Below the pieces are notes generated by a model. The model did not search any database. It had not been told where the DNA came from and saw only the letters and a program-made list of their open reading frames with translations. A stretch of 64,000 bases of DNA from Marvania coccoides (Eukaryota; Chlorophyta; Trebouxiophyceae; Chlorellales; Chlorellaceae), in NCBI GenBank assembly GCA_963854735.1, contig OY978097.1:1612001-1676000 (forward strand), in the 5' to 3' direction. A program made the position numbers and the translations under genes. Of the stretch, positions 3,602 to 53,367 are shown one piece after another; position 1 is the stretch's first letter; every line of letters begins with the position of its first letter.

Positions 3602-6600
3602 ATGGCTGCAGAACAAGAGGTGAGTCGCCCGTGCTCCCTGCAGCACTATCCGATCGCGTTCTGCACTCATTAGCGCGCACCACAACCTGCAGCTCGCTCA
3701 TTTTGCCCTCTGTTTTGATGCTTTTTTCCATAGGGTGACGGCGGTGCCGTCAGCGCAGCCGCTGCAGCAGTGGAGGCCCCCTACGAGGAGGTCTGCGCCA
3801 CGGTGGAGGCGCCTGCCTTTGTGGCGGATGCGTCCGCCGTCAAGGTGGTCTGGGCCAAGGTCGGAAGCCACCCCTACTGGCCGGTGAGTTCAGCAGCTCT
3901 TCAAAACCCTTTCGACAGATATTTCTTTTGATATTAGTTGTTACTTTCCCAATAGTATAGTACAACTGCTCTTTCTCTTCCTCTTCAACTTTTATAACCT
4001 TCTTACCCTGACACTAAAACAGATTTGTGTAACGCCTCACCCCCCCTCCCTGTCACCTCTGATTTTTTTCCCCCTTCTTTCTTCTCAGGCGCAAGTGCTG
4101 ACCCGCAAGGCGGTGAACGCCCGGCCCGCCCTCCAGAAGACCTCGCGCTCCAAGGCGGCGGTGGTACCCGTCATGTTTTTTGGGGACAACAATTCCCTGG
4201 GCTGGCTGCCTGAGAAAATGGTGCTGAGCTGGGCAGAAGGCGTGCAAAACGGCTGCCACAAAAAATCGTCGGCGAGAATGAAGGTGGGGGTGCGGGAGGT
4301 CGCCGCATTCCTGGCGCAGGAGGAACCCCGCGTGTCCCCCGCCCTGTGGTGGTGTTCACCCCCCGGCCCTGGCGGCGAAGTTGTGGCGATCCATCCCAAC
4401 CGGCACCCGCTGCCGTTTGCGCCGACCACTGCTGGAGTGGCGGCCGACGAGCCCGCGTCGCCTGGGGGACAGTCTGGCATGCGGTGGAGCGCGCGCGACG
4501 TGCTGAAGCCCTTCGTCAACCGTCTGCGCCGGCTGTTTCCGATGCTGGCTGCGCAGCCAGTGCCGGGCGCCACCAACGAGCTGTTCGACTGGGTGCGCGC
4601 CTACTTCGCTGCGGACCTCAACTTGGACCAGCCCCTCAAGGGCAAGACCCCTGCAGACCTGCTGGCGCAGATGTTCAGCCACCGGTCCGGGGGTCGGATC
4701 ACATCTGCCCAAGCCGCGCAGTTTGTGTCCTCCCAGCACGCCGACGAGCAAGGGCTGGCGGCGCTGGGGGTGGACCTGGTCGCATGGGAGGCTTCCCTGC
4801 CTCAAATCGACCCTGCGAAGATCCCGGTCAGCCGCCGCCCGCCGCCGGCGCTGGCGGGGCTGTCTGGGTGGACAGACCCCTCAGCGCCCACGCTGCAGGT
4901 GGTGAACGGGCGGCTGGTGATCCCTGCGCGTGTGCGCGCGGGGAAGACAGTCAGCGCTGGCGCTGCCGCTTCTCACACCGCTTTGTACGCTGACGAAGAC
5001 GACGGCGGGGCAGAGGGCGAGGCAGCCTCGGCGGCGCCGCGCGCGGGCATGGACGACCCCCCCAGCTACATACACGTCAAACAGAACGTGTGGGTGTCGC
5101 GTCCCCGGCCAAAGTAAGCTAGTTTTAGTTTGTCTGTTCGAAATAAAGTTGATTTCTACTTTGTTTACTTCTAAAACTGATTCCTTCATTTTATCTTTGA
5201 CTGCGTAGGCGGTTCTCCAAGGATGAGATCTCAGTGTGCAACTGCCGCCCCCCCCCCCTGCCGATGGACTTTTTCAGCCCTGTTGACGCCAACGCTGCAG
5301 CAGCAGCACAGCAGGAGCCCGTCGCGATGGAGGTGGACGCTGGTGCAGCAGAGGTCAATGCGGAGACGCAGCAGGACGACGCAGATGACGATGCTGCCAT
5401 CGTACGCCGCATGGTGCAAGCAATTTTTGCACCATACATCGTAGCACAACAGCAGGCGCAGCCGGCTGCTGTCCTAGCACCAGGTGACGCGGTCGGAGCT
5501 GCACCCGCGCAGCTGCCTCCTCTTCCCCCGCCGCAGCAGCCGGCAGCGGCAGCGGCGGCAATGCAGCGTCCTGGTTCCCGCCGCGGTGGCGCCTCTGCTG
5601 GGCCCTCCCGCCCCGGCTCCCGCATGCAGTCCGCCAACAGCGGGTCCTTGGACCAGGGCGGAGCAGCGAGCGCAAGCGCTGGCGGTCCCGCTGTTCCCTC
5701 TGGCGCCTCTCTGCCACGGGATGGCTGCCAAGAGGGCTGCCTCAACCGGCTGTCCTTCATCCACTGCGACCCCCGCACCTGTCCCTGCGGCGAGCGCTGT
5801 TCCAACCGTCCTTTCTTCCAGCTGGAACAGCCCAACATGGAGGTGTTCCTCACCGTAGACAAGGGGTGGGGGGTGCGCGCCAAGGAGTTCGTCCCCAGGG
5901 GCAAGTTTGTGGTGGAATATGCTGGCGAGGTGAGCCAGATATTGACCCAGTGATTTTATTACATAATAATCTCGATATTTAGTTTTAGTTTTTAGTCCCC
6001 CCCCCCCCCCCCCCCCCCCCCCCAAAAATGCGGGTTTACTTACAATTTCTACGTTTTTCTTTCTTCTTCTGTAGGTGGTGGACGACTACGAGATGAAGGT
6101 GCGCATGGAGGCCGCCCGCCGCGCCAACGAGCCCCACTTTTACATGATGGAGATGAGCACCGGTCTCATCATCGACGCCCGCCCCAAGGGCAACGTCGCC
6201 CGCCTGCTCAACTCCTCCTGCGACCCCAACTGCGAGACGCAGAAGTGGCACGACGCCGCCACGGGCGAGGTCCGCGTCGGCATCTTCACCCTGCGGGACG
6301 TTGCTCCGGGCGAGGAGTTGGTGTACGATTACCACTTCCAGCAGCTTTTTGGGGAGGGCGGCGGTGAGAACGGGGAGTACCAGTGCCGGTGCGGCGCTGC
6401 CAACTGCCGGGGCACGATGGACGCCAAGGTGGATCGCGCTGCAGACTGCGGGCGGCGCATTGAGATCTGGTGGCCGCAGGACGATTGCTACTACGCTGGG
6501 CGGGTCACCGGGTACTCCTCTGTCACCGGCAAGCACAACATCGTGTACGACGACGGGGAGAGCGAGAAACTGGACCTGAAGGTGGAGGAATACCGCTGGC

Positions 6601-9600
6601 TGGTCGAGGAAGAGAGCCCGGTGGAGGCGATTGCTGCAGTGATCGAAAATGTGGTGGCAGCCACGGTGACGGCGTGCGAACCGCAGCAGCCCGTTGCTGC
6701 CGAGCCCCAGCAGCCGCAGCGGCGGCAGAGGCCTCAGGCGCCTGCGGTGACGTTGGAGGGGATTGCAGCGGCAATGGAGGCCCCTATGGTGGAGCCAGCA
6801 GCGGCGGATGACCTTGAGTCTGCGGACTCGCTGCCACCCGCACCCATGGCCCCTGAGCCGCCCTCTGCGCTGCCCCCCGTGCTGCCCAAACTGTCTGCGC
6901 TGGCACCGCCGATGGCGGCGCCGGCACAGAAGAGAGGCCGCGGCCGGCCACCTGGCAGCGTCAGGAAGCTCCCCGCGGTGCCACACATGGCTGTGCCTGC
7001 CGCTGCGATGCCTGCGGCGGCTGTTCCTGCAGTTGCGGTTCCGATGCCTTCTGTTGTTGGGCTTCCTGAGGAGATGGAGGCGTTGGCGAGGCAGCTGCTG
7101 CTGGAGGGCGCGTGCCCAGGGGAGCTCCCGCCGCTGCACGCTCTGCGCGCTGTGCTGGAGCCTGCTCTCTCTTCCGCTCTTGACCACGTGGAGTTGGCCT
7201 CAGCGAGCTTGCTGCGGAACCCTCCTGCAGCAGCACCAGCAGCGGTGCCGGAAGGCGATGTTGAAATGAGCCCAGCTGGCGAGGAGGCTGTAGCGCCTGC
7301 AGAGGCGTTGGTGGAGGAGAAGAAGGCGGAAGAACAGGCTGCAGCGGCCATGGACTTGCCTGCGCCTGGTGAGGCTCCTCAGGATGCAGAGAAGAAGAAG
7401 AAGGAAGAGGAGGGAGCCCCCAACAACGTGCTGCAGCCGCTGGAGAACGGCTGCCACACAGCTGCGGAGTCTGCAGAGCAGCGGCAGGCGGCAGAGAGCT
7501 GTCCGCCGCCGCCCCAGGCAGAAGCAGAGCAGGGCAAACCCGCTGATGCCCTTGCTGCGTTTGCTGCTGGCCCCAACAGCCCACCCAAGGCGGAGACAGT
7601 AGTGGTTCCGTCCTCTGCCACGAGCAGCCTGCTCAACGGCAGCCCAGCTGCTCTGGCACCGCAGCCGCCGCTGCAGCTGCCGCTGCTGCGCTCGCTGCAG
7701 GAGGTGATGCAGACCGCGGCCCCCGCCGTAGCTACCGCCCACTGCGCCTCCCTCCGCCTACGCCTGTCGGAGCTGAGGGCGTATTTGGAGCGACACGCGC
7801 CGGCAGCTGCCGCAGCCGCAAACAAACACATCGTGGACAACCCTGGGGCACAGGCGGTGGCTGGGCGGCTGCATGGAAATGGAATGGGCAAGGGCCCCGG
7901 GCGGCCTCGCCGCAATCCGGCGGCAGCTAATACTGCCGCCTCCCCGAAGGCCTCCCGCCAGGCGCAAGCTGCTGCCGCCGCTGCTGCTGCGGTCCCCACC
8001 TCCGTGAGCGGCCGTGGCCGCAAGCGCCAGCGCAAGATTTACGGCGAAGACTTCCTGATGGAAGATTCAGACCAAGAGGGAGGGGCAGGAGCAGCGGGAC
8101 GCGCTGCTGTTGCATGCGGTGCCCCGGCTGCCGCAATTGCCGCCATGGCAGCTGCTGCAGCAGCTACTCCAGTTGAAGCTGCTGCGCCGCCTGCTGTGTC
8201 CCAGCCCTCTGCAGCCCCTCAGGAGGCCGTGAAAGTGGAGGCGGAGGCTCCCAATGGGGTTGCCGTCGCCGGCAGTCCCACTGCTGCGGAAGCCCTGCCA
8301 CCTGCCGCTGCAGCTGTGCATGTTGAGCAGGTGCAGCAGCTCCCGCCGCCGTCTCCCACTGCGGCTGTGGCAGAGGCCCCAGCTCCCACTCCCGCTCCAG
8401 CTCCCGCTACGGTGGCCGCCCCCATTGCCGCCCCTGTGCATGGGCGCCGAGGCAGCGGCGCGGGCCCCCGTCGCGGTGGCCCCACTCCCAGCTCCACCGG
8501 CCTCCCCGCCCGCACCATTCTGGTGGCCAAGCGCCTCACCAACAGCGACGTGAGCAAGGGTCGCATCCTGCTGCCCCGCGCCGCCGTCGAGGCGAACCTG
8601 TCGTTTGCTATCGGCCGCGCCCACTCTCTGGTGGCCAAGGACCACATGGGCCAGGCGTGGGAGTTCACTCTGCAGTCCTGGGCCAACGGCATGGAGAGCC
8701 GTCGAGTGTACGTGCTTGAGCACGCTGGAGAGTACATCAGGCACCACGTGCTCAAGCTGGAAGACGTCATCGGCATCTCATGCACGCAGGCAAGTTTTTA
8801 CAGCAGTTTGTAATCCTCATTAGTAGCTAGCATTTATTTTAATATCTTTAAAAAAATTTCTTCCACACGCAGGAGGGCGAATTCCTGGTGGAGTACAACA
8901 CCGAGGAGGTGTGCAGCGCTGCGGAGACGCAGCAGGCGGCGCGCGCCACCACCGCCTCCCCGCAGATCCACCATGCGCCTGCTGGCGGTGCTTCCGGAAC
9001 CAACCCGCTCATTCAGCACAACGCCGGACGCTGCACCCGCAGCGAGTACTGCAACAAGCCCGCTGGGCACCCCGGCTTCTGCATGCGCACGCCCGGAGGG
9101 GCGCTCAAACGGCAGACCGCCGCCGCGCAGGCCCGCGCCACTGCTGCTGCCGCCGCCGCTGCAACAGCCGCAGCGGAGGCACAGGGGCACTCCACTGGGC
9201 ACTTGGCCACCCTGGGCAAGCGCATGCCGTCGTTTGACGAAGGCGCGCGGCAGAAACGCTCCCGTCGGCCACCCCGCAAGACTTCGTCGTATCACCTCAG
9301 TACCGAGGAAGACGAGGCGTCGTACTCGGAGCTGGACGATGACGAAGATGACGACGAATTCGATAGCGGGGCGGCGCAGGCTGCGATGGGAGGAATAGAC
9401 GCAGAGAGGGCCGCGCTGGGCGGCCACGCGTGGGGCAATTGCGGCATGGGCAGCGCCGCTCCTGGAGCTGGGCTGCCTTTCGGCGGTGCCGGGGCGGTTG
9501 ACCCCAGCGGCGCGCTCGGCGTGTACGCATCTTCCACGCACGCCGTCGCTGTGGGGCCTGGCCCTGCGGTGATGGCGGCGGCGCACCGCTCAACGCCCCC

Positions 9601-15886: not shown

Positions 15887-18009
<2,123 letters not shown>

Positions 18010-20066: not shown

Positions 20067-20103
20067 TCATGGCGCCGGCTGCTGTTTTTGCTGCTGCTGC
20101 TGT

Positions 20104-20138
<35 letters not shown>

Positions 20139-21250
20139 GGCAGGCTTCTCCAGCGACGGCAGCTTCGCGATCTCTTCGGGCTTGGCGAACCCGCCGGCCG
20201 CGGCGATGAGGGCAGGGAGGTAGGGGTAAGTCTCCCGATACAGCCCCCGAATTGTGTTTTCCGCCACGCCGCACACCTTGCAGATGTCTTCCAGCGAGGG
20301 CCGCTTGGAGGCGCGCGGCAAGTTAGACATGATGAACATGACTGTGCCTGCGATTGTGCTGGGGGACTTGCCGTGCCACAGCTCGTGCGCCGCGACGGCG
20401 GCATCGCCCTCCTGCGGCAGCATCGCCCGCGACAGCGCCACCGCGCCCATCATGTCGGGGTTGCTGAAACCCAGCATCGACATGAACCGCCGCAGGAAGT
20501 TCTCTGGATGGATGGCCTCCACCTCCGATCGAAACGCCCCGGTTTCCTTCAACCTCAGATCCGCAACGATGGCCTTGTACATGCGCCCAATGTCCTTGAC
20601 CTTGGCCTGCGGCACGAACGCGCAAATCTCCTTGAATGTGCGCGCCGAGCCAGTCTGGCGGCAGGCCAGGAACACCACCGCCGCCACCACCGCCTGCTGA
20701 GACTTTGCTTTCACCGACTTCGACTTCTCCGAGGCCTCCTTGAAGTACTCGTTGGCCTGGTGCTTGACCACGTCGGGCAGCCGCATGGAGGAGCACACCC
20801 GGCCGATCTCCCGGAAGGCGGCAATCAGCGCTCTGTCGGGACCCATTTCAGTCCTCGCTTGCATGCGCTGCAGGTTGGATGCTAGCCCCTTGTCGATGCC
20901 CTTGCCGCCGGAGATGATGGTGGACAGCCCGCCGTCGCTGAGCAGCGCGTTGACGGGGCCCCCCACGCGGTTGGGGTCTGCCCCGTCCTTTTCTTTGTCG
21001 GTGAACGTCCGCCACTCGGAGCGCTCGTCGATGAGGTGGGACTCCGCCACGCGGCCGCAGCTCTGCAAGAGTGAATATTACGACTAATGAGCGGGCGGTT
21101 CAGATGCTTAAAAAGGCAGCCAGGAATAAAAACACTTGCCCTGCAAATCAGATCACCAGAGGCGTGGTCCTCCACGAAGTCTGACTCGCCGCAATCCAGG
21201 CACCGCTGCTCATACTTCATGCGCAGGGCGACATTGAACTGGTCCCCCAT
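20067..21250 (-). CDS. TFIIB: Transcription initiation factor IIB with polyglutamine tail
   Basis: Exons 21250-21140 and 21062-20067 give 368 aa. The N-terminal zinc ribbon is CLDCG then ICRSCGRV, followed by the B-finger-like HLIDERSEWRTF. Two cyclin-fold repeats follow (AVVAAVVFLACRQTG and the second repeat ending KVCGVAENTIRGLYRETYP). The protein ends with 17 consecutive Gln (about 346-362) coded by mixed CAG/CAA, then KQQPAP. TFIIB bridges TBP and RNA polymerase II. The intron is GC-AG: AGG/GCAAGT; it is required because CxxC of the ribbon is built across the junction. Animal and plant TFIIB lack such a tail as far as I know. Confidence 0.93.
20079..20141. repeat. CTG/TTG repeat coding the TFIIB polyQ tail
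   Basis: Imperfect CTG array on the plus strand with TTG interruptions at regular spacing, reading as CAG with CAA breaks in TFIIB. The interruptions should make it more stable than the pure array in REV3. Confidence 0.85.
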
Positions 21251-25749: not shown

Positions 25750-26828
25750 ATGGGGGACTACGAGGAGCAGCAAGAGATGGAAATTGAGGCATTAGAATCG
25801 ATTTTAATGGACGATTTACAAGGTGGGGACACATGGCATGTATCTTCTGTATCTATTATTTCGGTATTAATATTCGGCTTTCGCTCTTGTTACGAAATTC
25901 ACTCGGAACTGATCATTCAATTTTTCCACAGAGGAGGACGATGTCCCCAGCGGCTGGAAACCGACTTCAAAAGTGTACCGAGTAGAAATCGCGCCTCAAA
26001 TCGATGGCGACACTCAAAGTAAGCCCACACGATTCAGTATTTTTATTTTCCTCCTCCGCCCGTCACCACACTCTCTCCTCATTCTTTTCTGTTACGTCAC
26101 AGCAGTCCTGGCAGAGGTGGTTTTCTCCCACACCCCCGCCTACCCCGACGAGCCTCCGCTGGTGAAGGCCCGCAGCGTGCGCGGCCTGGGAGACGGCGAC
26201 GTTGATGCGCTGCAAGCAGTTGTGGCCGCCCAGGTGGAGGAGAACCTGGGCATGCCCATGATCTACCAGCTCATCACCGCCGCGCAGGAGTGGATGACCG
26301 ACAAGGGCACGGCCATGGCGGAGCCCACGATCGACCCCGAGGCCGAAAGGAAGCGGGCGCTGGAGGCGGAGGAGGCAAGAATTGCGGAGATGAGGGCGCA
26401 CGGCACGGCCGTGACGCCCGAAACCTTTGCAGAGTGGAAGGTCAAGTATGACGCGGAGGTGGCGCTGGCGAAAGCGTCGCTGCAGGACGGTGCTGCGGTG
26501 GCCAGCAAGGGGAAGATGAGCGGGAGGGCCTTCTTCCAGTCAATGGAGGCACAGCACATCGAGCTGGAGGAGCCGGACCTGGACGACGACGATGAGGACG
26601 GCGAAGGGTCGCGTAGCACGTGGAGTGGGGAGGACCCCACAGACTACTTTGGTGAGAGGCTTGAAATTCATTCAGCGGTTTCCCCTGCAAGTCATCCGTC
26701 TGTTTTTTTGGTTCCTAACCAACCTTCCCTTCCTTTTTCGGGCAATTGCAGGCAAGGAGCTGCTGGAGGCAAGCGACAGCGACGATGACGTGCTCGATGC
26801 GATTTTGGCTGGAGCTGAAAATACTTGA
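25750..26828 (+). CDS. RWDD1: RWD domain protein, RWDD1/DFRP2 family
   Basis: Exons 25750-25822, 25932-26018, 26103-26651 and 26752-26828 give 261 aa. The N-terminal RWD domain opens with the classic EEQQEMEIEALESIL helix and includes the YPDEPP motif (AYPDEPPLVKARSV). The second half is charged and helical, with the GTAVTPETFAEWKVKYDAE segment typical of the DFRP region and an acidic end. RWDD1 (Gir2 in yeast) stabilises DRG2-type GTPases and contacts the Gcn1 translation-stress system. All splice joins fall in phase 1. Tail-to-tail with ENSA (258 bp). Confidence 0.9.
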
Positions 26829-27085: not shown

Positions 27086-27620
27086 TCACCGAGAGTCGCC
27101 AAGCTGAGAGTTGCGGCGCGGGAGGGGCTGCGAGGGTTCTAACTTGGGTTGCAGCTTGGGCCCCGCCGCCGACTGGCCCTGCTGCTTGCCCATCTGCCAA
27201 TCTGCCGAGTCAAAGTACCTGCGAGTGATGGGGGCAATGTGAAGCGGTAAAAAGAGGCAGATTTGCTACAATTTGGCACGCGTTAAACACGATAAATTAG
27301 AAATGAAAGGCAGATCTGGGGATGGGATCGGGCAGCCAGCCAAAACAAACTCGTTGAGCCAACCCCTTTCCGCGGTAACGATTATGAGTGACACGTACTT
27401 GTGGTCTTTGGGAACCAGCTTTTTCTTCGGCAGTAGCCCTCCATATTTCGCTTTCAACAGCTGCTCTTGTAAAAGCTCGGTACTGTTTTGAGCCTGCATC
27501 ACGCGGAATCTGCTGTTAGTTGACGTTCAGAAAACGTGCATGGGCCATTCGGCAGGCTTGTTCATCTGCATAACGCACCTTCGGCACCACGGGTGCAGTA
27601 GATTGGATTTGGTCGTTCAT
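27086..27620 (-). CDS. ENSA: Endosulfine (ENSA/ARPP-19/Igo family), PP2A-B55 inhibitor
   Basis: Exons 27620-27579, 27493-27399 and 27218-27086 give only 89 aa. The core KAKYGGLLPKKK, then KDHKYFDSADWQMGKQ, is the plant-type endosulfine core. FDSADW corresponds to animal FDSGDY, with the target Ser at about residue 50. Once phosphorylated there by Greatwall (animals) or Rim15 (yeast), these proteins inhibit PP2A-B55. The FDSADW codons are joined across the last intron (AA/GTACGTG, acceptor CTCGCAG). Flanks are disordered and the C-terminus holds a PRRNS basic site that could be phosphorylated. It is head-to-head with an IRE/Greatwall-like kinase gene, 338 bp between ATGs. Too small and split for simple ORF calling. 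Confidence 0.9.
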
Positions 27621-27958
27621 CTCGGCGTCCAGGAAGCCTGCCCTCTTCAAACCCGAGAATGCGAGTGTCTGGGGGTTTGCAAAAATATTTAGAATCCGCA
27701 AAACTTGTAATAAATAGCGACACAAAACACCGAACCACCCCATTCGTTCTTTCTTCCTCTTCAGCAATTTTACATAGCCCCCCAAAACAGGTTAATTTCG
27801 CTTGTCGGAAATACACATTACACAAACTACATATGCAGATGGCTGCACAGGCTACAGAGCCTGCTGTAGTACAACAATGTAAACATGTTTGTGTTGCTAA
27901 TTAGTTAGAGAGAGAAAAGCTCTGAGTTGCGTCCTGGTCGTAGCTGTCGTAGCGAACA
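27621..27958. promoter_or_regulatory. Shared promoter between ENSA and the IRE/Greatwall-like kinase
   Basis: 338 bp between the two start codons, AT-rich, carrying both transcription starts. No motif recognised, but the arrangement allows co-regulation of a kinase and its predicted substrate. Confidence 0.6.
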
Positions 27959-30900
27959 ATGGGAAGATTGAACGACTCTGCAGAGGAAATCCAACACGGC
28001 GAGGAGCCAGGCTCAACGCCGGGTGGGCCACAAGATCGCCCATCTCCGTTTGAGAGCACCTCAGTGAGGACCTTTTAACTACGGACACGCATTTTCTCTT
28101 AATCTCCTTTCAACAACTTAATTTCACCTCTATTTCTCACCGCTGCCTCCTCTAAATTTTCTAAAATTCCCACCCGCCCACAGGCTGTGACACCCATCAC
28201 CCCATACGTGCCCCCCATCTCGCTGAAATGCGCGGGTCGGGCAAAGTCTCCCCTGCGACGGGAGTGCCACACCGACGCCCCTCATTTTCACCACAGAGTG
28301 CCGTCTCTGTTTCCACGCCCAGACGAACAGCCCAGAATGCGACCGGTCACGGGGGGACCGAGCCTTCCGCCGGTACGCCACCATGTGTCATTTCCAGTGC
28401 CTCATTATCGCTTAATCCGCAAAATTCTGTGTTTTTTTGTGCAACTGACGCAAACCTTTCTTTATTGCTTGTTTCTTCCCCAGGACTCCAGCCCTGGGGC
28501 GCCCTCCCCCGCCACCATTTGCAAGACCAAGTTGGAAAAGTCGTTCCGGGTGGCCAAGCTGCAGGTGAATCGCGATTTGGGCGCGTTTTTGGCGGAGATG
28601 AGGGCAGAGGCGGTACAATCCGATGCAGAGCAGGCCGAGGAGGCACGGGCGCGAGAGCACGTGGCGACCACGGCGCAGCGGTGTCTGGATGAAGACATGG
28701 AGACGTTCAAAGAGAGCATCAAAGCGGAGGTGGACGCCCTGGAGGAGCTCCGCCGCAGCACAAAGTGGCGCCCCGCCAAGCAGCTCTACACCCGCCTGCT
28801 GTTCATTCTCACGCGCTGCAGCCGACTGCTGCTCAGCGAAGACAGCAGCCCTGGCGCGCTGAACGCGGCGGCGGTGGGCCAGGGGGTGGCGGTGGGCCAG
28901 GGGGGGGGTCGCACCGCCGGCAAACCGACAAAAGCGCTGGAGAGCAGGCTGGGGGTGTCTGGGAGAGCAGCAGCAGCTGTTCCCCGGTTGAGGGGCACAG
29001 AGGAGCGTGCCGCAGACATGCGCAGGGCTGGACCTTCTCCCAGGTCGCGCCTGAGCGGCGTGGGGGGGTCTCCATTGGCCAGAGCAGTGACGGCATCGTC
29101 CCGCAGCCTTTTGGATGCAATGCAGCGGCTGCAGCTGGGGGGAGCGGCGGGAGCAGGACCCTCAGTACTCAGTCCTACTCCCGAGTCCCCCCCGTTGCCT
29201 TCCTCCCAGCTGCAACAACAGCAGCAGCAGCTTTCTCCGGCAGGGCAGCGCGGCGTGTCTCCACGCATTCTCTCGCCGCTGGGACGCACCGTGGTAACCG
29301 CGCTGGAGGCGCAGCTCGACTCCGCGGCTCCCGACAGCCCGCCCACCGCAGACATCGCGTCTTCTCCCAGGGAACTGCTGCCGACGGCGCCCGCCGCCCC
29401 GCCATCGCACGGCACCCCGCTGGAGCTGCGCAAATGGCGACAACCACCCGCCGTGGTGGTGCCAACATCAGCGCCAACAATACTGCAAGCGGAAGGCAGC
29501 ACTCTCACAGACACAGACACCAATGCATCTGATTTGGACGCCTCTATGAGTTGTGACTCTCCCGCTGACAGCGCGGCGGTCACGCCCCGCGTGGGGCAAC
29601 CCCTTGCCGCCCCCTCCCCCGCATCACGCCCGCCGCTGCACCCTGGTCTCGCCAGGCGGCTGACGGTGGCTGTGGGGTCGTCGGAGAGCAGTCCCTGCGG
29701 CTCCCCGCTCGCCAGCATCGCCAGCGGCGCTGTGTGCCCGGTGTGCAGCGAACGGGTGCGGGAGAAGGTATTGGAGGAGCACAGTGCGACATGCACGTGG
29801 TTGGAGGGCGTGTGCCGCCCAGAAACAGACGTTGACATCGTTTTGACGCGGCTGAGCGCTGCAGCGGAGGAACACATGGCGGTGCAGCAGGAGCAGCAGC
29901 AGTCTAGACCCACTGCTGGGGGATTGCCAAGTGAGGAAGTGGAGGGAGTGGTGGCCGCGTGCCGCCAGGCGGCTTCCCTGCAGCCAGACGGCAGTCGGCA
30001 ACCGGCCGAGCGCTGTGAGGCGGTGGCCAATGCGCTGGCCACGGCGCTGGCAGCCCGCCCCTCCGACGCGGTGGCTGAAGCCTTCATCATGCGCGCGCTC
30101 ATGTTGGTGCGTCGAAAGGCGGCAGAGCTCGCTGGCGGAGGCGGTTTAAGCTCTTCCGCTCGAGGAGTCGGCGGAGGAGATGCATCCGTGTCTGGCGCAT
30201 CTTCCCTTGCTGTGCCTCCCCTCCATCACGCAGCCATGTGCATCGACGACTTTGAGATCCTCAAGCCCATCAGTCGCGGGGCCTTTGGGCGGGTGTACCT
30301 GGCGCGCAAGCGCTCCTGCGGCGATCTCTTTGCCGTAAAGGTGATGCGCAAGGCTGATCTGGTGCGAAAAAACATGGTGCAGTCGGCGCGCAACGAGCGC
30401 AACATCCTGGCCATGGCCTCCAACCCGTTTGTGGTGCGGTTCTTTTACTCTTTCACCTCTCGCGACAACCTTTACATCGTCATGGAGTACGCCCCTGGCG
30501 GCGACCTGGCGTCGCTGCTGCGCGCGCTGGGCGCGCTGGAGGAGGACACCGCGCGGCAGTACGTGGCGGAGGCCGCGCTGGCGTTGGAGTACTGCCATGC
30601 GCAGGGCATTATTCACCGCGACTTCAAGCCTGACAACGTTTTAATTTCAGCAGACGGCCACGTCAAGCTCACCGACTTTGGGCTGTCGTGCTTTGGCGTG
30701 ATCGACCGCACCGACCCCCACCCGCGCGCCATGGGCTACGACTCGGGCTCACTACCATCCTCCCCCAACGGCAAGCTGCTGCGAGCCAGCGGTGGGGCCG
30801 TGTCAGCCCCTGAACTGTTGCAGAGCCCCGCCAGCAAGGCCGACCTGCGGGCTGCCGCCGCCTCGCTCGCTTCCCCGCGCCTCATGCCGTCCCCCCGGCT

Positions 30901-32131
30901 GATGGCGGGTGGCGACGATGGGCGGCGGGCGGTGGGCACGCCTGACTACCTGGCGCCGGAGCTGCTGCTGGGGACTGGGCACGGGCTGGACGCCGACTGG
31001 TGGAGCCTGGGGGTGGTGCTGTTTGAGGCGGTCGCGGGGGTGCCTCCCTTCTCCGCTGGCTCCCCCGAGGAGATCTTCCAGAACATTCTCGAGCGCAGCA
31101 TCGCGTGGCCGCCCCCTGGCACGCTGTCGCCCGAGCTGGTGGACCTGCTGGACCGGCTGCTGCAGCCCAACCCGGAGGCGCGGCTGGGGCACCGCGGCGC
31201 GTGGGAGGTGAAGATGCATCCCTGGTTCGAGGGGGTGGATTGGACGGGGCTGGCTCGGCAGAAGGCAGCCTTTGTGCCAGAGCCCAGTGACGAGACCGAC
31301 ACCTCCTACTTCCTCTCCTCCAAAGAGGTATCGCAAATGTCGCTGGCGTTGGACCTGGAGAGCGCGCGCAGCACGGCTGCGGGGGGGGTGCCATGGCAAG
31401 AAGGCGGCGGCGGGTGGATTGGCAGCTCCAGGGGCGGCTCCAGGACGGGCTCAGCGATGCAGAGCCCCGCGGCGCCCTCGAGACAAGCCTCATCCCGCCG
31501 CAGAGCGTTGAAAAAGCGGTCGTTGAAGCGGCTGTTGGCCTCCTCGGCCGAGGACGCTTCCACCGCCACCGGCTGCAGCAGCCGGGCGTCGATATCGCTG
31601 CCAGACGGCGACTCCCTCACCTCCTCCCAGCACATGGGTGGCCAAAACAGCAACGCCGTGGCGCACGCCACCGTAGCTGCCGCCGCCGAGGCGCTGCGGC
31701 GGCACCAGGCCGCCAGAGAGGGAGACGAAGAGGATGAAAGCAGCGATGGCGGGGGAGAAGGAAGCGATGGCGGGTCGATGTCGGAAAGAGGCTCTCCTGA
31801 CGACGCAAGCGAGAGGTCTGAGGAGGATGCTGGGGACGTAATGCCAGGAGCAGAGGGAGCGGAAGGCGGGGCTTCTTATCGGCACTTTTACGGCACCCCC
31901 AGGTACAATGTGGAGAGCGTGGGGGTGCTGACGGCAGGCAGCACCCTGTTGGGGCTGGAAACAGAGAACGTTGAAGAGGATGAGGACGTGTGGGAAGAGT
32001 TTAATCGGCCGCCTGACATCGATGCCCTGCGCTCAATGTCTGCGGCGTCCAGCCCGCAGCGCATGCCCATTGGCGCTGCAGAATTCCGAAGAGGGGGGAG
32101 CCTGCCCCCGCCGCCTGAACAAACGACATGA
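27959..32131 (+). CDS. AGC kinase of the IRE / MAST / Greatwall-Rim15 class
   Basis: Exons 27959-28063, 28184-28372 and 28484-32131 give 1313 aa. An N-terminal helical domain specific to plant IRE kinases appears around 105-215 ([12 protein letters not shown], then [15 protein letters not shown]). A C2H2-like finger near 515 reads [20 protein letters not shown]. The kinase domain spans about 683-1020: [30 protein letters not shown] (Phe for the usual Leu), DFGLS, and GTPDYLAPE after an insert of about 85 residues in the activation segment. That insert is the hallmark of IRE/MAST/Greatwall kinases. Long Ser/Pro-rich linkers with polyQ flank it. In other eukaryotes this class phosphorylates endosulfines, encoded by the adjacent divergent gene. 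Exon 1 and its ATG (27959) are inferred from in-phase splice sites TCA/GTGAGG and CCG/GTACGC. Confidence 0.88.
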
Positions 32132-37394: not shown

Positions 37395-39408
37395 ATGTTT
37401 TACAGCTCGCAGCTGTTGTCGCGCAAGACAGCGCTGGGCATCTGCTGGCTGGCCTCCCACTTGGAGAGCAAACGATTGAAACGCGCACAGGTTGGTTCTT
37501 CAAGCCCAAAGATCCAGTCTTTCACCCCGCAACTCATCCATTTGTGTGTATCTATCTCAGGTATTCGAAGTGAGCATTGCCCAGTCATGCGACAGCATCA
37601 TCAACCCCGAGGCCCCGCTGGCGCTGCGCCTGTCGGGACAGCTCCTGCTGGGCGTGGTGCGCATCTACCAGCGCAAGCTCGCCTTCCTAGAGACCGACGC
37701 CAAGAACGCCATCGACGGACTGCAGCGCAAGGACGGCGGCAGCCACAACGTTGACCTGCCTGATGGCGGCACCGCCCCGGAGGTCGCCATCACGCTGCCA
37801 GACGCCGACACGGGGCTGTTTGCAGGGGCGGAGCTGTTTCCCTCATTTGCGATGGCTGATCCAGGCGCAGCAGCCGGCGGAGAGGGTGCCAGCAGCCTGG
37901 CAGCGCGGCTGGCGGGTCCTGGCACCACTGCCGACTCGTTGACCTACGCTGACGACATCTCCGACGTGCTGGGGTCCTCCCGTTGGACCGCCAGCGAGGA
38001 GCGCTTCGATCTGGTGGGCGGGGACGACATCGATCGTCGATTTTCCGCAGAATTAGAGCGGCTGCGCTCGGCGGCGGCGGTGGAGGCCCCCCGCGACGCC
38101 GCGACCGATCTGTTCTTCGACGCGCCCGTGGACGACAGCTACGGCCCCGGCGGCATGGACGAGATCATGGAGCCCCCCGCAGACGACCTGTTTGTGATGC
38201 CGGAGCGCCGCGAAGATGCTGGCCCCACGCCTGGGTCGATTGGAGGGGCCTCGCTGCCCGGCGCTGCCGGCTTTGGGTTCACCCCGCCCAGCCTGGGCCT
38301 CAGCGACGCGCTGCCGGACCTGGGAGGGGGCCCTGGGTCCGCCCCCACCACCCGGCGAGAGAAGGCCACGCCTGGCTCCTCTGGGCGCGCCAAGCAGCGC
38401 AAGAAGAAGAAGATCCAGATCGACGTGGCGCACGACGGGAGCGCCGCCACCCAGCTCCCCTCGGACGAGATCCGCAGGCTGCTGAACAACCGGGCGCCGC
38501 TGCTGAAGCGGCGGGGGCTGGGGGACGCGGCTGCCGCGCCGCCCGGACCCCCCCCGCGCCCCTTCGACGTGCGCTCACAGAGCGAAGCGGCTCGAGACAG
38601 CTACCTATACCGTCCTGCGTGCACCGACCGCCTGGATCCGCAGCTGCTGGCAGTGTTCAACCGAGCGCTGGGCGTCAGCGACGACACCGGCAGGCCCGCA
38701 AAGGGGCGCAAAGCCGCTGCAGCGGTGGCGGAAGCGCCTGCCGCGGCGACGCCTGCCGAGCAGCCGTTTGTGGCGTCTCCTGGAGGCGGCGGTGCTGTGC
38801 CGTCGTTTGGCCTGCCTGGTCCCAGTCCTGCAGGCACCTGGGGTGGGAGCGACGGGGGTGGCGGGTACTTTGACGACGGCGGCAGCGGAGGAGGGTACTT
38901 CCCCGAGCCAGACCTCATCGAAACGACGCAGCCTGGGGGCGAAGAGGGAGCGGGGGCTGCGGCAGACGAGCGCCGGCTGTCCACCGGCCGAGGCGGCAGC
39001 GTGCCGGCGCTGGTGCTGGCTCCCGTGGAGGGCGGGCGGCGCATGTCGCTGGGAGACCTGCAGGAGGAGGAAGAGGAGGCTCGGCAGGGCGGCGGCGATG
39101 GACTGACTGCCGACGGCTTCACCGCCCGCACCAAGCTCGTGATGGAGCACCTGGCATCCAGGTTCGCCGCGGGGCCTTCCCCTGGGGACAAGCGCAGGCG
39201 CTCTGGCGGTACTGAGGGTGGTGCCATCGCCAGTGTGTCGCTGGATGGGTTGGTTGTGGGGCGGCCGCGCCTCGAGGCGTGCCGCTGGTTCTTCGAGGCG
39301 CTGGTGCTGCGCAACAAGGGGTACGTGGACCTGCACCAGACGGAGCCCTACGGCGAGATCTCGATCACCCCCATGGCCAAGCTGCGCGAGGCGGCAGCGA
39401 TTGAGTGA
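37395..39408 (+). CDS. RAD21: Cohesin kleisin subunit (RAD21/SCC1 family)
   Basis: Exons 37395-37490 and 37561-39408 give 647 aa. The N-terminal SMC3-binding domain is characteristic: MFYSSQLLSRKTALGICWLA, then HLESKRLKRAQ joined across the intron to VFEVSIAQS, and the LRLSGQLLLGVVRIYQRK helix. The C-terminal winged helix that closes the ring on SMC1 is also clear (ACRWFFEALVLRNKGYVDL then EPYGEISI). The long middle is acidic and disordered, where separase and SCC3 sites would lie. It could be RAD21 or its meiotic paralogue REC8; the MFYS start favours RAD21/SYN type. Confidence 0.9.
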
Positions 39409-39945: not shown

Positions 39946-41170
39946 ATGAAGGTGCAGGCTCTGTTCGGCAAGTCCACCAAGTCGGGTCCGGCCAAGACCG
40001 CCAAGAAGGCATCTGCCCCCGCGAAGAAGACTTCATCTGGAGGCAAGGGAGGATGGCTGGGATCCAACAGCCAGAGCCTCGGCCTGGACAAGTGGTAAGA
40101 AGCAATGCAGAGCGGCGAGACGCCCCAAACTTTTCTTGATCTTCACATCGAAGCCTAGCCTTATCTTCCCGGCGATCGCACTCTTTCCGACCCGCGATGG
40201 CCCTTTTCTCACCTTTGCTCCCTTCTTTGCACTCAGGTACGGCCCTGACCGCAAGCTCTTCCTGCCCGGAGGCCTGCTGGAGCGCTCCGACGTGCCCGCC
40301 TACCTCAACGGCACCCTCCCCGGAGAGTGAGTGAAGATTTGAAACCTGCGTTTGGCATCTCTAATTCTGCATCGATTCAGCGGTTTTGGGGCCCGCACTC
40401 GTCAAACTCTAGATTTGCCCACACAAAAAATCTCCGCCTTATCGGCGAGCCTTGGGGCCTCTTTTCTCAGCAGCTTAGCAGCCATCAACCAATAATCAAA
40501 CCTGCAAACCCTTCTCACCCTCCGCCCCTCACCTCCCCCCGCTTGCAGCTACGGCTATGACCCCCTGGGTCTGGGAGCCGATGGCGGCGTGGACAAGTAC
40601 CGCCCCGCTGAGCTGCTGCACGCCCGCTGGGCCATGCTTGCCGCCGCCGGCGCCATCATCCCCGAGGGCCTGGCCGCCAACGGCGCCGACGTCAAGGGCG
40701 CCGTCTGGTGGGAGACCGGCGCCGCCATGCTGGACGGCAACACCCTCAACTACTTTGCCGTGCCCTGGGCCAACGTGTCCAACCCCCTGCCCCTGTTCCC
40801 CGTCCTCGCCATCAACGTGGCGCTGATGGCCGCCGTGGAGGGCTTCCGCAAGGCCGGAACCGGCCCCGCCGGATTCTCCCCCGGCATTGGCAAGTTCGAT
40901 GCTGGCGTGTTCGACGGCGTGGACCCCATGTACCCCGGAGGCCCCTTTGACCCCCTGGGCCTGGCTGACGACCCCGAGGTGCTGGCGGAGCTCAAGGTGA
41001 AGGAGATCAAGAACGGCCGCCTCGCCATGGTGTCCATGCTCGCGTTTGGCGTCCAGGCGCTGGTCACCAAGGCCGGACCCTTCGCCAACCTGCAGGCGCA
41101 TCTGTCCGACCCCTTCGGAAACAACCTGCTCACTGTGGTTGGCTCGGCGGAGCGCACGCCGACACTCTGA
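39946..41170 (+). CDS. LHCB5: Chlorophyll a/b-binding protein CP26 (minor PSII antenna)
   Basis: Exons 39946-40094, 40237-40326 and 40549-41170 give 286 aa. Diagnostic LHCB5 features: [23 protein letters not shown], the first helix [26 protein letters not shown], and the third helix [19 protein letters not shown] followed by [11 protein letters not shown]. The E-x4-H/N-x-R chlorophyll-binding pairs are intact. The Lys/Ala/Ser-rich N-terminus (about 45 residues) is a chloroplast transit peptide. It sits between LHCII trimers and the PSII core. A TAATAAAC signal near 41279 probably ends the transcript. Base use is strongly C-biased at third positions, as in highly expressed algal genes. Confidence 0.95.
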
Positions 41171-42301: not shown

Positions 42302-45011
42302 CTAGTGCTGCTGTTTGTTGGCAGCAGCTGTGCTGCCGTCCTCTTCGTGCGAAGGCGGCACCCCCGCCGCCGCCGCGCGCTCCGCAACGCTGTACGCCGG
42401 CACTGTGGTGTGGCTGCGGTCTGTGTAGGTGGTGTGCAGCAGCTCGTGGCTTAGCTCCCCACCAGGCGCCTTCAGGTAGTTGTCGTAGAGCTGCTTAATC
42501 TCCGGGTTCTCGTGGCTCTTGCGCAGCACCGACCGTTCGTCCAGGGTGTAGATGGCGCCCATGCGCTTCAAAATGGCGCTAGGATCCTTGGTCTTGGGCT
42601 GTCCACCGCCGCCCACGCACCCCCCAGGGCACGCCATGACCTCGATAAAATCGTACTGCGGGGCGGTGCCCTCTGCCATGGCCTGCAGCAGATGGCGCGC
42701 GTTGCCCACGCCGGAGGCCACCGCCACGCGGATCTCGCGGCCAGCCACGCCGGCAGGGGCGGTGGCAGGCAGCTTCACGGTGGCTTCCTTCACGCCCCGC
42801 AGCCCGCGAATTTCGTCCACTTCCAGCTTGGGCAGCGGCTGCCCCGAGGCCACCTCGTAGGCGGTGCGAAGCGCGGCCTCCATGACGCCGCCGGTGGCGC
42901 CAAAGATAACTGCCGCCCCGGTGGACGCCCCCATTGGGGAATCAAAGTCGGAATCTGTCAGCGAGGCAACGGGGACGTTTTTCAAGCGCAGGATGTGGCC
43001 CAGCTCGCGTGTGGTGAGCACGTAGTCGACGTCGCGGGGCTCCCCCGGGCGGAGCAGCTCCTCGCGCTCCGCTTCGTGCTTCTTGGCGGTGCACGGCATG
43101 AAGGACACCAGGCACATGTCTTCTGGCGCGACACCCAGCTTGGTGGCGAAATAGCGTTTGGCGACGGCACCCATCATCCCCTGCGGCGACTTGCAGCTCG
43201 ACATGTTCGGGATGAGCTCGGGGAAGCTTTTTTCTACCAGAGTGATCCACGCTGGGCAGCAGGAGGTGAACATTGGCAGCGGGCCAGGGCCGTGGTGACC
43301 GTGGGCGGCGTCTTCTCCTCCGATGTGTTCGGCAGCAGCAGCTGTGGTCTCTTCGGAAGCGGGCGTGTCCAGCCCCCAGGCGTGGGTCAGCCGCTGCAGC
43401 AGCTCTGTGCCCTCCTCCATGATGGTCAGATCGGCGGCGAAGTCGACATCCAGCACATAGTCGAAGCCCAGTGCGCGCTACATTGGAGGAGGCAAAAAAA
43501 TACAATTAGGGGCCTGTTAAATTGCAAATCATTTCCCACATGTCTCTGCTTTTCCCCGCCGGAAATTAAAATGCACTTTCTACAAAATAAAATAAAAGAT
43601 CTCACCTGCGCGGCGACCATCTGGCCGACAGTCATGGCCCCAGCAGCCATGCCCACCTCCTCTCCCAGCGCCACCCGCACAGCGGGGGCGGTCACTGCCA
43701 CCATCACCTTCCGCTTGGACTCCAGCTCGTCCACCACCGCACGCCACTCAGAGCGCTCCCGGATGGCACCCACAGGGCACACGCTGGCGCACTGCCCACA
43801 CTCGATGCATTTCGACAGCTCCAGGGCGTCTGAAATGATGGCGGGGTGGCGCTCCCGCCCCCGCCCCTCCCACCCCAGCACATTCATCTCCTGCACCAGC
43901 CCGCAGGCCGTCACGCACCGTCCGCACCGCAGGCACTTTTCCAGGTCGATGTCCAGCGCGGGGGTGGTGGGGGCAGCTGTGTCTGGCGACATGTGCAGCG
44001 CCTCAAAGTCAGACTGGACCTCCTCGTCCCACTCGTGGCTATAGTGCCGCAGCTGCGGCAGCGCGTCGCCCACGTTGTACCGGCGCAGCAGGTCCTGGAA
44101 CTCGCAGCGGCCGTTGACGTCGCAGGTCATGCAGTCCTGAGGAAATTTTTATTGATTGATTGCGGGGATAATTTAATACTTGAATTGAAAACACAACACT
44201 CATAAAGTCAGATGACACGCTGTAATAACTCCTCCTAGCTATATCTCTTATACAGCCCACTCACCAGGGGGTGGTCAGCGCGCAACAGGGCCAGCGTGCC
44301 TGTCACGCTCTCACGGACTTTCTTTGTGTCTGTCGCCACCTTGACGCCCTCAGACACGGGCGTAGCGCATGCAGGCACCAGTTTGCCATTCTGCTCCACC
44401 AGACAGAGGCGGCAGGTGCCAGGGGTGGTTGGCAGGCGGCTGCAAGAGAGGAGGAAATATCGACAGTTGGTGTTCTTAACTTGATACTAGTCGAAAGAGT
44501 GCGGAAAATAATAGGAATGGCCGTAATAATACTCACGGGTGTGTGCACAACGTGGGGATGCTGATTCCCAGTGCTGATGCAGCGTGCAGAATTGAGGTTC
44601 CCTGCAAATAAAGGAAACCAAACTTGTAATGCCGTTGTATTGTTCGCTGTAATTATAAAAACCAAGCAAGCTCATCATAAGGTTTTCAGACGATGTTTGC
44701 AATTCGCTCTTCCACGGCTCTCTAAATTTCCCCTTCTCACTGACCTCAGGGACCTCAATTTCTCGGGCGTTGATATTGGCCTTGACCTTCTTCACGCCGG
44801 CTGCGTACTCCTCGGCCGTTTGGGCCACGGTGGGCACCGGGTAGGAAAGGCCGGCGGGGGAGCGGATGCCGCGGGTGGAGGACAGGCGAACGCTGTGGCC
44901 GCTGGACCAAGCCGCCGAGATGACGCCTACAGCATGCCAAGCACACTTGAATATCGACCCATCGGCGAGCGCATGGGCGCCCAAGCCGGTCAGAGAGTTA
45001 AGAGGAAGCAT
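42302..45011 (-). CDS. HYDA: [FeFe]-hydrogenase with full set of accessory Fe-S domains
   Basis: Exons 45011-44745, 44601-44537, 44439-44265, 44136-43606 and 43477-42302 give 737 aa. After a targeting leader of about 60-65 residues (Arg/Ser-rich, RLSSTRG; organelle uncertain) come: a [2Fe-2S] domain as in NuoG (Cys spacing 11, 2, 11: LCTHP, TCRLC, ACATPV); a His-Cys [4Fe-4S] motif (HPLDCMTCDVNGRC); a double [4Fe-4S] ferredoxin unit (CLRCGRCVTAC and CIECGQCASVCP); then the H-cluster domain with TSCCPAW, MPCTAKKHEA and MACPGGCVGGGGQP. All cluster cysteines are present, so it should be active in H2 production under anoxia. The order equals clostridial CpI, whereas Chlamydomonas HydA1/2 have only the H domain. 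Exon 1 could be shorter if an AG near 44930 is an acceptor. Confidence 0.93.
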
Positions 45012-52326: not shown

Positions 52327-53367
52327 TCAAGCTCCGTACCCAAACACCCTCCGCATTCGCAGCAGAACCTGCTCCTTCCACCCCGCTTCCGTCATGCGCA
52401 CAACGTCGTGCTGCCCAAACCGATCGGTGTCAGGAATGCCGCTCTGGTGCAGCTTCAGCGTCACCGCTCCCTTGTTCTTTTCCTCGAGCTCAATTTTCAC
52501 CAAGCTGGTGGCGCCCTCCGGCCAGCTGCTGAAGCGCCAGTCCATGAGGATGTGGTTGGGCGGCTGCAGCTCGCGGAAAGTGCCCTGGATGCTGCCGCCA
52601 AACATCGAAAAGGCGCCGCCGGGACGAGCATCCACCTCTGCTGCGCTGCCAGTGAACGCTCTCACCTTGCCAGCGTCGGTAAAGCACTGGAATAGGTCGC
52701 TGCTGGAGCAGTAGTACTGCTCAGTGATCTGAATCGAGCTCCCGCTGGTTTTCTTCTTCGTTTCTGGCTTCGCCGTTGCCACCAGCGCTGGTTTGTCTGA
52801 TGGTTTGTCTACCGCAGCAGCCGCAGCAGGCTCTTCTGCCTCCCCTTCGCCGTCCGCTGCCGCGCCGCTCTTCATCACCGGCCCTCCGGCCTGCATCTCC
52901 GTCACAAACTGCGCCACCGCCTTGTACACCCTCGGGCGGCCGTGCTGCACGATCAGGCTGCGCATCTTCTCGCCCGCCGCGCCGCCGCTGGAGCACGTCA
53001 CCTGCACCTCCGGGTCCTCGTCGTAGTTCTCTTCGCTGATGTAGGGCGCCTTGACCTCGCCGCTGGCTTGATTGCCCTCAGCATCGGTCCCCGTCCACTT
53101 GATGGCTAGGTCCAGCTCGTACGCTGGGATGATTTTGCCCTTCCGCTGGTTCACTATGGCGTCGCCCGTCAGGGTGACGTCGTCAGCGGTCTTTACGACG
53201 GTGCCGTCCCTTTCCACCAGCGTCTGCGACGCTAGCAGCTCCTTCAGTCGGTCTTTGCTCCACGGCAGCACGTTATTCTCCACCCAGTGCCAGCCGTTGA
53301 CATTGCGGCCAGACTGTCCCAGGTCCTGCACCTTCCACCGCTCGTCGCCCTCGCCCCACTTGGCCAT
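52327..53367 (-). CDS. AHA1: Activator of Hsp90 ATPase (AHA1)
   Basis: Single exon, 346 aa. The N-terminal Aha1_N domain has the signature NVNGWHWVENN and the helix KLKELL-type segment DRLKELLASQ. An Ala/Glu/Lys linker (about 165-210) leads to the C-terminal AHSA1 (SRPBCC) domain with GGAFSMFGGSIQGTFREL, ILMDWRFSSWPEGATS and the final helix GWKEQVLLRMRRVFGYG. The protein binds the Hsp90 middle domain and stimulates ATP hydrolysis. Head-to-head with the glutaredoxin gene. Confidence 0.95.
   Translation of the reverse strand: MAKWGEGDERWKVQDLGQSGRNVNGWHWVENNVLPWSKDRLKELLASQTLVERDGTVVKTADDVTLTGDAIVNQRKGKIIPAYELDLAIKWTGTDAEGNQASGEVKAPYISEENYDEDPEVQVTCSSGGAAGEKMRSLIVQHGRPRVYKAVAQFVTEMQAGGPVMKSGAAADGEGEAEEPAAAAAVDKPSDKPALVATAKPETKKKTSGSSIQITEQYYCSSSDLFQCFTDAGKVRAFTGSAAEVDARPGGAFSMFGGSIQGTFRELQPPNHILMDWRFSSWPEGATSLVKIELEEKNKGAVTLKLHQSGIPDTDRFGQHDVVRMTEAGWKEQVLLRMRRVFGYGA

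What the first reader, a model, noticed from the sequence alone, without database searches (positions are those of the whole stretch)
27086..32131. Endosulfine and an IRE/Greatwall-class kinase encoded head-to-head: a linked kinase-substrate module
The minus-strand gene 27620-27086 encodes an 89-aa endosulfine with the Greatwall target FDSADW. The plus-strand gene 27959-32131 encodes an IRE/MAST/Greatwall-class kinase with the class-defining activation-segment insert. Their ATGs are 338 bp apart. In animals (MASTL-ENSA/ARPP19) and yeast (Rim15-Igo1/2) these families form the switch that inhibits PP2A-B55 in mitosis or quiescence. Physical linkage with a shared promoter would give stoichiometric co-expression, and I know of no description of such linkage in algae.
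Basis: partly seen in the sequence, partly recalled or inferred. Interest (0 to 1): 0.85.

Follow-up and report, generated by a model that had tools for sequence, protein, structure and literature searches.

The report
Greatwall-type kinase gene beside its substrate
In this green alga the gene for a cell-cycle/quiescence switch kinase lies head-to-head with the gene for its presumed target protein, and records of several distantly related green algae also place the two genes next to or near each other, which points to a still unproven green version of a switch known from animals and yeast.

Summary
Both genes are real. On the minus strand (27620-27086) a three-exon gene encodes an 89-aa endosulfine (PF04667, E 2e-12) with the KYFDSADW site. 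On the plus strand (27959-32131) a three-exon gene encodes a 1313-aa IRE/MAST-class AGC kinase; its best solved relative is Greatwall (303 bits, next family 243). The ATGs are 338 bp apart. In the 22.5-Mb genome one endosulfine and one B55-type PP2A subunit were found, and no second IRE-class kinase among those inspected.

Conservation, from gene numbers and contig lengths in protein records of 12 other green algae with both proteins listed: consecutive numbers in 3, 2-3 apart in 2, 11 apart in 1, same contig in 3, different contigs in 2, undecidable in 1. Published work finds only 252 conserved adjacent pairs among 5,232 orthologues between two trebouxiophytes.

Best reading: the green Greatwall-endosulfine-PP2A/B55 switch kept as a linked, probably co-regulated pair. 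Kinase activity on this endosulfine, the shared promoter and orientation in relatives are inferred. Slow decay of old synteny is the main rival.

The parts
27579..27620 (-). endosulfine exon 1 (start codon at 27620)
   Evidence: splice model and translation
27399..27493 (-). endosulfine exon 2 (conserved QEQLLKAKYGGLLPKKKL block)
27086..27218 (-). endosulfine exon 3 (phosphosite motif, C-terminal RRNS motif, stop)
   Evidence: own-genome matches
27206..27208 (-). codon of Ser50 in KYFDSADW, the presumed Greatwall-class phosphosite (equivalent to ENSA S67 / ARPP19 S62)
   Evidence: alignments; position worked out by hand from the model
27621..27958 (.). 338-bp divergent intergenic region, candidate bidirectional promoter (44.7% GC)
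   Evidence: promoter function inferred only
27959..28063 (+). IRE/MAST-class kinase exon 1
28184..28372 (+). kinase exon 2
28484..32131 (+). kinase exon 3 (most of the protein)
28511..28864 (+). conserved N-terminal region (TKLEKSF...[13 protein letters not shown]); possibly the area likened to DUF1908 in plant IRE kinases
   Evidence: alignment A2, (columns here nearly invariant in 20 rows); exact [10 protein letters not shown] in 9 of 20 relatives; likeness to DUF1908 in plant IREs from PMC12024977 passages; equivalence of this stretch inferred
29735..29794 (+). C2HC-type finger [20 protein letters not shown]
   Evidence: pattern present in 18 of 20 relatives; Pfam zf-C2HC_2 match below cut-off
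30239..31312 (+). AGC kinase catalytic domain
30674..30961 (+). DFG-to-APE activation segment with the class-defining insert

Best explanation
The pair encodes the upstream half of the green-algal Greatwall-endosulfine-PP2A/B55 switch. The IRE/MAST-class kinase phosphorylates Ser50 in the FDSADW motif of the small endosulfine; phospho-endosulfine then occupies and inhibits PP2A-B55, so that CDK- or stress-dependent phosphorylations persist at mitosis or on entry into quiescence. The genes sit head-to-head over 338 bp, probably driven by a shared bidirectional promoter that keeps kinase and substrate expressed together, and selection on that arrangement has slowed its break-up in core chlorophytes. 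Shown here: gene identities and layout; one endosulfine and one B55 found; no second IRE-class kinase among those inspected; linkage in several other algae from gene numbers and contig lengths. Inferred: phosphorylation, PP2A inhibition, shared promoter, selection.
For: Endosulfine with FDSADW; of the 126 endosulfine rows listed have FDSAD, 1 FDSGD, 1 FDSKA and 5 no FDS (one search found 1692 in all and listed 120). A profile of 12 green-algal and unnamed metagenome endosulfines has ARPP19 of PDB chain 8ttb_D as its only match up to E 1 (E 8e-4), with KYFDS aligned to KYFDX (that this entry is a PP2A-B55 complex is recalled). Kinase: Greatwall is the best PDB match, 303 bits against 243 for CBK1; relatives are named IREH1, IRE3, IRE4 and AGC-MAST and group with it apart from four own-genome AGC kinases. 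One endosulfine in the genome; next kinase match 180 bits against 815 for itself. B55 at C2:1677148-1678356, pieces 52% and 59% identical to the human query. Linkage: Parachlorella N2152v2_006130/006131, Trebouxia ABBQ32_001154/001155, EukProt scaffold20.g7617/g7618, Haematococcus QJQ45_017100/017098, Gonium GPECTOR_4g630/4g627, Symbiochloris WJX73_009617/009606 and same-contig pairs in Micractinium, Chlorella vulgaris and Myrmecia. Animal MAST3 (on ARPP-16) and Mast2 (on ENSA S67) phosphorylate endosulfines, so the activity is wider than MASTL (passages of PMC12024977 and PMC12732324).
Against: No biochemical or expression data. A 2025 review passage says plants lack Greatwall homologues and that functional homology of plant MAST kinases is undetermined (PMC11829769). 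The genes are on different contigs in Pedinophyceae sp. YPF-701 and in Apatococcus fuscideae (short contigs there); they are 11 numbers apart in Symbiochloris and 3 in Gonium. In C. reinhardtii the gene numbers on either side of the endosulfine are AMYB1 and an SMC gene. Gene numbers are not always positional (Myrmecia, a second Haematococcus endosulfine). Orientation and distance in relatives were not readable. Chromosome-scale synteny is kept between some chlorophytes, so 'same contig' alone is weak.
Confidence: 0.65

Rival explanations
1. Inertia: the two genes were neighbours in an ancestral chlorophyte and have simply not been separated yet, because divergent neighbours with overlapping promoters are costly to split and chlorophyte chromosomes keep their gene content. 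No selection for kinase-substrate co-expression.
For: Conserved synteny with shuffled order is documented for Coccomyxa and Chlorella (252 conserved adjacent pairs among 5,232 orthologues; passages of PMC3446292). In this genome a beta-amylase and an SMC match, of the families that flank the endosulfine in C. reinhardtii, also lie on contig C1 and about 15 kb from each other.
Against: Those two matches lie about 430 kb from the endosulfine here, while the kinase is next to it (orthology not tested; both families have further matches on other contigs). Consecutive or near numbers recur in Parachlorella, Trebouxia, Gonium and Haematococcus, which I recall as different orders and two classes. A rate near 5% of orthologues makes repeated retention uncommon, though a genome will still hold some such pairs by chance.
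Confidence: 0.28
2. The IRE-class kinase mainly acts on other substrates (for example cytoskeletal proteins) and the endosulfine is phosphorylated by another kinase; the neighbourhood is incidental.
For: IREH1 co-localises with centrosomes when expressed in animal cells, and plant IRE kinases are tied to root-hair growth (passages of PMC12024977 and PMC12732324). No test of a green IRE kinase on an endosulfine was seen in the listings (searches list 20 of 1,373 and 20 of 1,696 papers).
Against: MASTL, MAST3 and Mast2 phosphorylate endosulfines at the same site, Rim15 and Igo1/2 are paired likewise in yeast, and no other kinase of this class was seen among the own-genome matches inspected.
Confidence: 0.15
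3. Chance adjacency in this one genome.
For: A compact genome has many divergent pairs, and a reader looking for known partners will find some.
Against: Consecutive gene numbers in three other algae.
Confidence: 0.02

Closest known systems
MASTL/Greatwall - ENSA/ARPP19 - PP2A-B55 (animals)
   Same: Endosulfine with the FDS[AG]D site; kinase catalytic domain closest to Greatwall among solved structures; B55 present.
   Different: Kinase is undivided IRE type with 93 residues from DFG to APE instead of the very long split domain of MASTL (length recalled); motif is FDSADW, not FDSGDY (recalled); genes are linked (in human they lie on different chromosomes, recalled).
Rim15 - Igo1/2 - PP2A-Cdc55 (yeasts)
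   Same: Same kinase lineage and substrate family, used for quiescence and gametogenesis (passages of PMC5618240).
   Different: Yeast genes are unlinked and Rim15 has extra regulatory domains (both recalled).
IRE / IREH1 / IRE3 / IRE4 kinases of land plants
   Same: Same family by sequence: C2HC finger, AGC domain with activation-segment insert, no PDZ domain found by Pfam.
   Different: Longer activation segment (93 residues against 52-56 in the three land-plant IREs measured; the streptophyte alga Spirogloea has 94); linked to the endosulfine gene; no paper seen shows a plant IRE acting on endosulfine.
[quoted passage not shown]
   Same: Divergent neighbours under 1 kb apart (definition in abstracts listed).
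   Different: Here the partners are a kinase and its presumed direct substrate.

Membership tests
Endosulfine/ARPP19 (PF04667) | Profile match above the curated cut-off | tested here: met
   47.3 bits against 29.8
Endosulfine/ARPP19 (PF04667) | FDS[AG]D phosphosite motif | tested here: met
   KYFDSADW
Endosulfine/ARPP19 (PF04667) | Phosphorylated at that Ser and then inhibits PP2A-B55 | not testable with these tools
   needs biochemistry
IRE/MAST lineage of AGC kinases | AGC catalytic domain with activation-segment insert between DFG and APE | tested here: met
   93 residues; catalytic Lys, HRD and DFG present in the protein. The catalytic loop reads HRDFKPDN, while all 20 relatives have HRDL, HRDV or HRDM
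IRE/MAST lineage of AGC kinases | Groups with named IRE/MAST kinases to the exclusion of other AGC kinases of the same genome | tested here: met
   quick tree, 24 IRE-type rows apart from 4 own AGC kinases, SH-aLRT 98; the outgroup branches are long and the tool warns of this; ten rows went in untrimmed (columns under 60% filled dropped)
IRE/MAST lineage of AGC kinases | C2HC finger of plant IREs, no PDZ | tested here: met
   finger pattern, 18 of 20 relatives, (Pfam finger match below cut-off); no PDZ match up to E 10
IRE/MAST lineage of AGC kinases | N-terminal DUF1908-like helical domain | tested here: inconclusive
   conserved region in the alignment, exact core motif in 9 of 20 relatives; PF26031, precomputed for most relatives, was not reported for the window, P0026 or P0031 by the local Pfam copy, although P0026 and P0031 carry it; no structure was predicted
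MASTL/Greatwall proper | Kinase domain split by a very long (hundreds of residues) insert | tested here: not met
   93 residues from DFG to APE
MASTL/Greatwall proper | Phosphorylates endosulfine at the FDS[AG]D site | not testable with these tools
   needs a kinase assay
Conserved co-regulated bidirectional pair | Adjacency kept in distant relatives | tested here: met
   indirect: consecutive gene numbers in 3 of 12 other taxa with both proteins listed, near or same-contig in 6 more, different contigs in 2, undecided in 1
Conserved co-regulated bidirectional pair | Head-to-head orientation kept in relatives | not testable with these tools
   no algal contigs could be fetched; strands are not shown in the protein tables
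Conserved co-regulated bidirectional pair | Correlated expression | not testable with these tools
   no expression data at hand

The most novel reading that the evidence does not exclude
The IRE kinases are the Greatwall of the green lineage, and core chlorophytes have kept kinase and substrate as one co-regulated locus since before Trebouxiophyceae and Chlorophyceae separated: a eukaryotic, operon-like kinase-substrate unit for the PP2A-B55 switch.
Probability: 0.5. Interest if true: 0.82.

Novelty: new variant of a known kind. Interest (0 to 1): 0.7.

Why it matters
A 2025 review passage says plants lack Greatwall homologues and that it is undetermined whether their MAST kinases do its work. 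Conserved linkage is independent genomic evidence that the IRE kinase is the endosulfine kinase, and it points to algae with single-copy partners as organisms in which the question can be settled by a knockout and a kinase assay. Deeply kept kinase-substrate linkage would also be unusual for eukaryotes (my judgement, not searched).

Tried and rejected
No scan of metagenome contigs was made because its stated cap was 0. So orientation and distance in relatives stay unknown.

Finding the kinase's gene number in C. reinhardtii through papers: led to numbers next to the endosulfine (g307100 ABC1/COQ8-type kinase, g307150 beta-amylase, g307250 SMC); the papers all hold numbers beginning g3075 and were not opened. 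The ABC1/COQ8 kinase is annotated as another family and I did not take it for the IRE kinase.

A mention of Greatwall in a Coccomyxa genome paper proved to be the species name greatwallensis in a reference. A paper describing the linkage was not seen in the listings; these cover open-licence PMC papers only, some lists are capped, and most listed papers were not opened.

First-pass DFG-to-APE lengths were wrong where an APE or DFG lies elsewhere and were replaced; two of its 21 rows (Prototheca, Coccomyxa) had no DFG pattern match there and have no length. Proline-directed sites in the insert, as a parallel to Greatwall's CDK sites, were not used: 4 in the window, 0 in Gonium, C. schloesseri, Pedinophyceae and the three land-plant rows.

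Rows bearing on linkage that I could not use: Nannochloris (endosulfine from strain 2526B, kinase from strain 2437B); EukProt rows gene30770-35809 (kinase) and gene18589-25101, gene1640-33031 (endosulfines), whose naming scheme and species I do not know and whose numbers are not close. Only the best 120 of 2,786 kinases and of 1,692 endosulfines were listed, so taxa below these ranks were not examined.
Full report
What is there. The window is part of a 22.46-Mb, 15-contig genome (C1:1612001-1676000) of a green alga; the closest named relative of both proteins is Nannochloris sp. 'desiccata' (endosulfine 70%; kinase 70% over the searched region; 88% over 339 tree columns). The endosulfine gene splices cleanly to 89 aa and passes the Pfam cut-off. 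The kinase gene splices to 1313 aa. The start codons are 338 bp apart.

The kinase. Its catalytic domain matches human Greatwall best among solved structures, 303 bits, then CBK1 at 243, STK38 at 242 and PKA at 218 or less. Of the 120 homologues listed, those with an organism name are green algae or land plants, several named IREH1, IRE3, IRE4 or AGC-MAST; many others are unnamed metagenome proteins. A quick tree sets 24 IRE-type rows apart from four other AGC kinases of the same genome; long outgroup branches and ten untrimmed rows are caveats. The protein has the N-terminal conserved region and the C2HC finger seen in relatives and no PDZ match. The activation segment has 93 residues from DFG to APE, against 52-56 in three land-plant IREs, 94 in Spirogloea and 83-304 in the 14 chlorophyte relatives measured. 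It is thus an IRE/MAST-lineage kinase, of the undivided kind that a review places before the split of animal MAST and MASTL (passages of PMC12024977), not MASTL proper. In the own genome the next match scores 180 bits against 815. I inspected loci L003-L012 of the 126 matches; by eye they look like PDK1, NDR, PKA/PKG and other kinases. The remaining, weaker matches were not inspected, and the tool scores only the best candidates.

The endosulfine. KYFDSADW is intact. In an alignment of 12 proteins F, D, S and the C-terminal RR.S are invariant. A profile of these has ARPP19 of PDB entry 8ttb as its only hit up to E 1, while the single sequence finds none at E 1e-3. The gene is single in the genome by family and by protein search. 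The third component, B55, is present at C2:1677148-1678356; the PP2A catalytic and scaffold subunits were not searched.

Is the linkage conserved? The listed protein records hold both genes for 12 other taxa. Consecutive gene numbers: Parachlorella kessleri (006130/006131, both on a 4,246,843-base contig), Trebouxia sp. C0010 (001154/001155, both 2,746,166), EukProt scaffold20 (g7617/g7618). Two or three numbers apart: Haematococcus lacustris (017100/017098, both 6,605,496) and Gonium pectorale (4g630/4g627, both 3,985,136). Eleven apart: Symbiochloris irregularis (both 1,085,900). Different contigs: Pedinophyceae sp. YPF-701 (1,336,373 and 1,606,737) and Apatococcus fuscideae (21,511 and 84,905, too short to judge). 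Undecidable: Nannochloris (two strains).

How unusual is that? Coccomyxa and Chlorella variabilis share only 252 conserved adjacent pairs among 5,232 orthologues, with gene content better kept than order, and only weak synteny between Trebouxiophyceae and Chlorophyceae (passages of PMC3446292). So same-contig linkage is weak evidence, adjacency is stronger. A partial internal control: in C. reinhardtii the endosulfine is CHLRE_06g307200 and the neighbouring numbers are beta-amylase AMYB1 (g307150) and an SMC gene (g307250). Here a beta-amylase match and an SMC match lie on the window's contig, at 1.189 Mb and 1.205-1.209 Mb, about 430 kb from the endosulfine at 1.639 Mb. Both families have further matches (beta-amylase also on C10; SMC on six other contigs), and I did not test orthology. 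If these are the orthologues, they separated from the endosulfine while the kinase is next to it; their own closeness, about 15 kb, also shows that other old linkages persist. By number the kinase is probably not the immediate neighbour in C. reinhardtii, as it is not in Gonium.

Mechanism. In animals MASTL, and also MAST3 and Mast2, phosphorylate endosulfines at the same serine; in yeast Rim15 acts through Igo1/2, and phospho-endosulfine inhibits PP2A-B55 in mitosis or quiescence (passages of PMC5618240). The most likely mechanism here is the same, with the gene pair probably co-expressed from the divergent 338-bp region. The kinase-substrate step and co-expression are inferences. A 2025 review passage states that functional homology of plant MAST kinases with Greatwall is undetermined, which is why the linkage is informative. 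The presence of endosulfine across plants is, as I recall, already published (Labandera and colleagues, 2015; not seen here).

Verdict. The components are known families, so it is a new variant of a known kind. Retention by slow decay of ancestral synteny is the serious rival and cannot be excluded with the data at hand.

Noticed in passing
window 42305-44148 (-): [FeFe]-hydrogenase large-subunit domain plus upstream ferredoxin-type 4Fe-4S domains in overlapping frames (Pfam Fe_hyd_lg_C, Fe_hyd_SSU, Fer4): probably an intron-split algal hydrogenase with an N-terminal iron-sulfur domain.
   Followed up: partly
window 25913-26785 (+): RWD-domain protein with a DFRP_C/Tma46 match, convergent with the endosulfine gene.
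   Followed up: no
window 37480-39405 (+): Rad21/Rec8-type cohesin kleisin (both Pfam ends), about 5 kb beyond the kinase gene.
   Followed up: no
window 6075-8810, 15890-17590, 20070-21077, 40496-41167, 52330-53433: SET-domain protein, succinate dehydrogenase flavoprotein, TFIIB, chlorophyll a/b-binding protein and Aha1-type Hsp90 activator.
   Followed up: no
window 28373-28483 (+): Kinase intron 2 is 111 bp, a multiple of three, and stays open in frame, so retention would add 37 residues.
   Followed up: no
window 30239-31312 (+), catalytic loop: The kinase reads HRDFKPDN where all 20 relatives compared have HRDL, HRDV or HRDM; effect on activity unknown.
   Followed up: no
own genome C1:1188867-1209166: A beta-amylase and an SMC match lie about 15 kb apart on the window's contig; in C. 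reinhardtii members of these families carry the numbers on either side of the endosulfine.
   Followed up: partly
endosulfine C-terminus, window 27086-27218: A basophilic RR.S motif is invariant in 12 aligned endosulfines, and R[RK].S occurs in 95 of 126 listed rows, at the place of the PKA site of animal ENSA (recalled).
   Followed up: no
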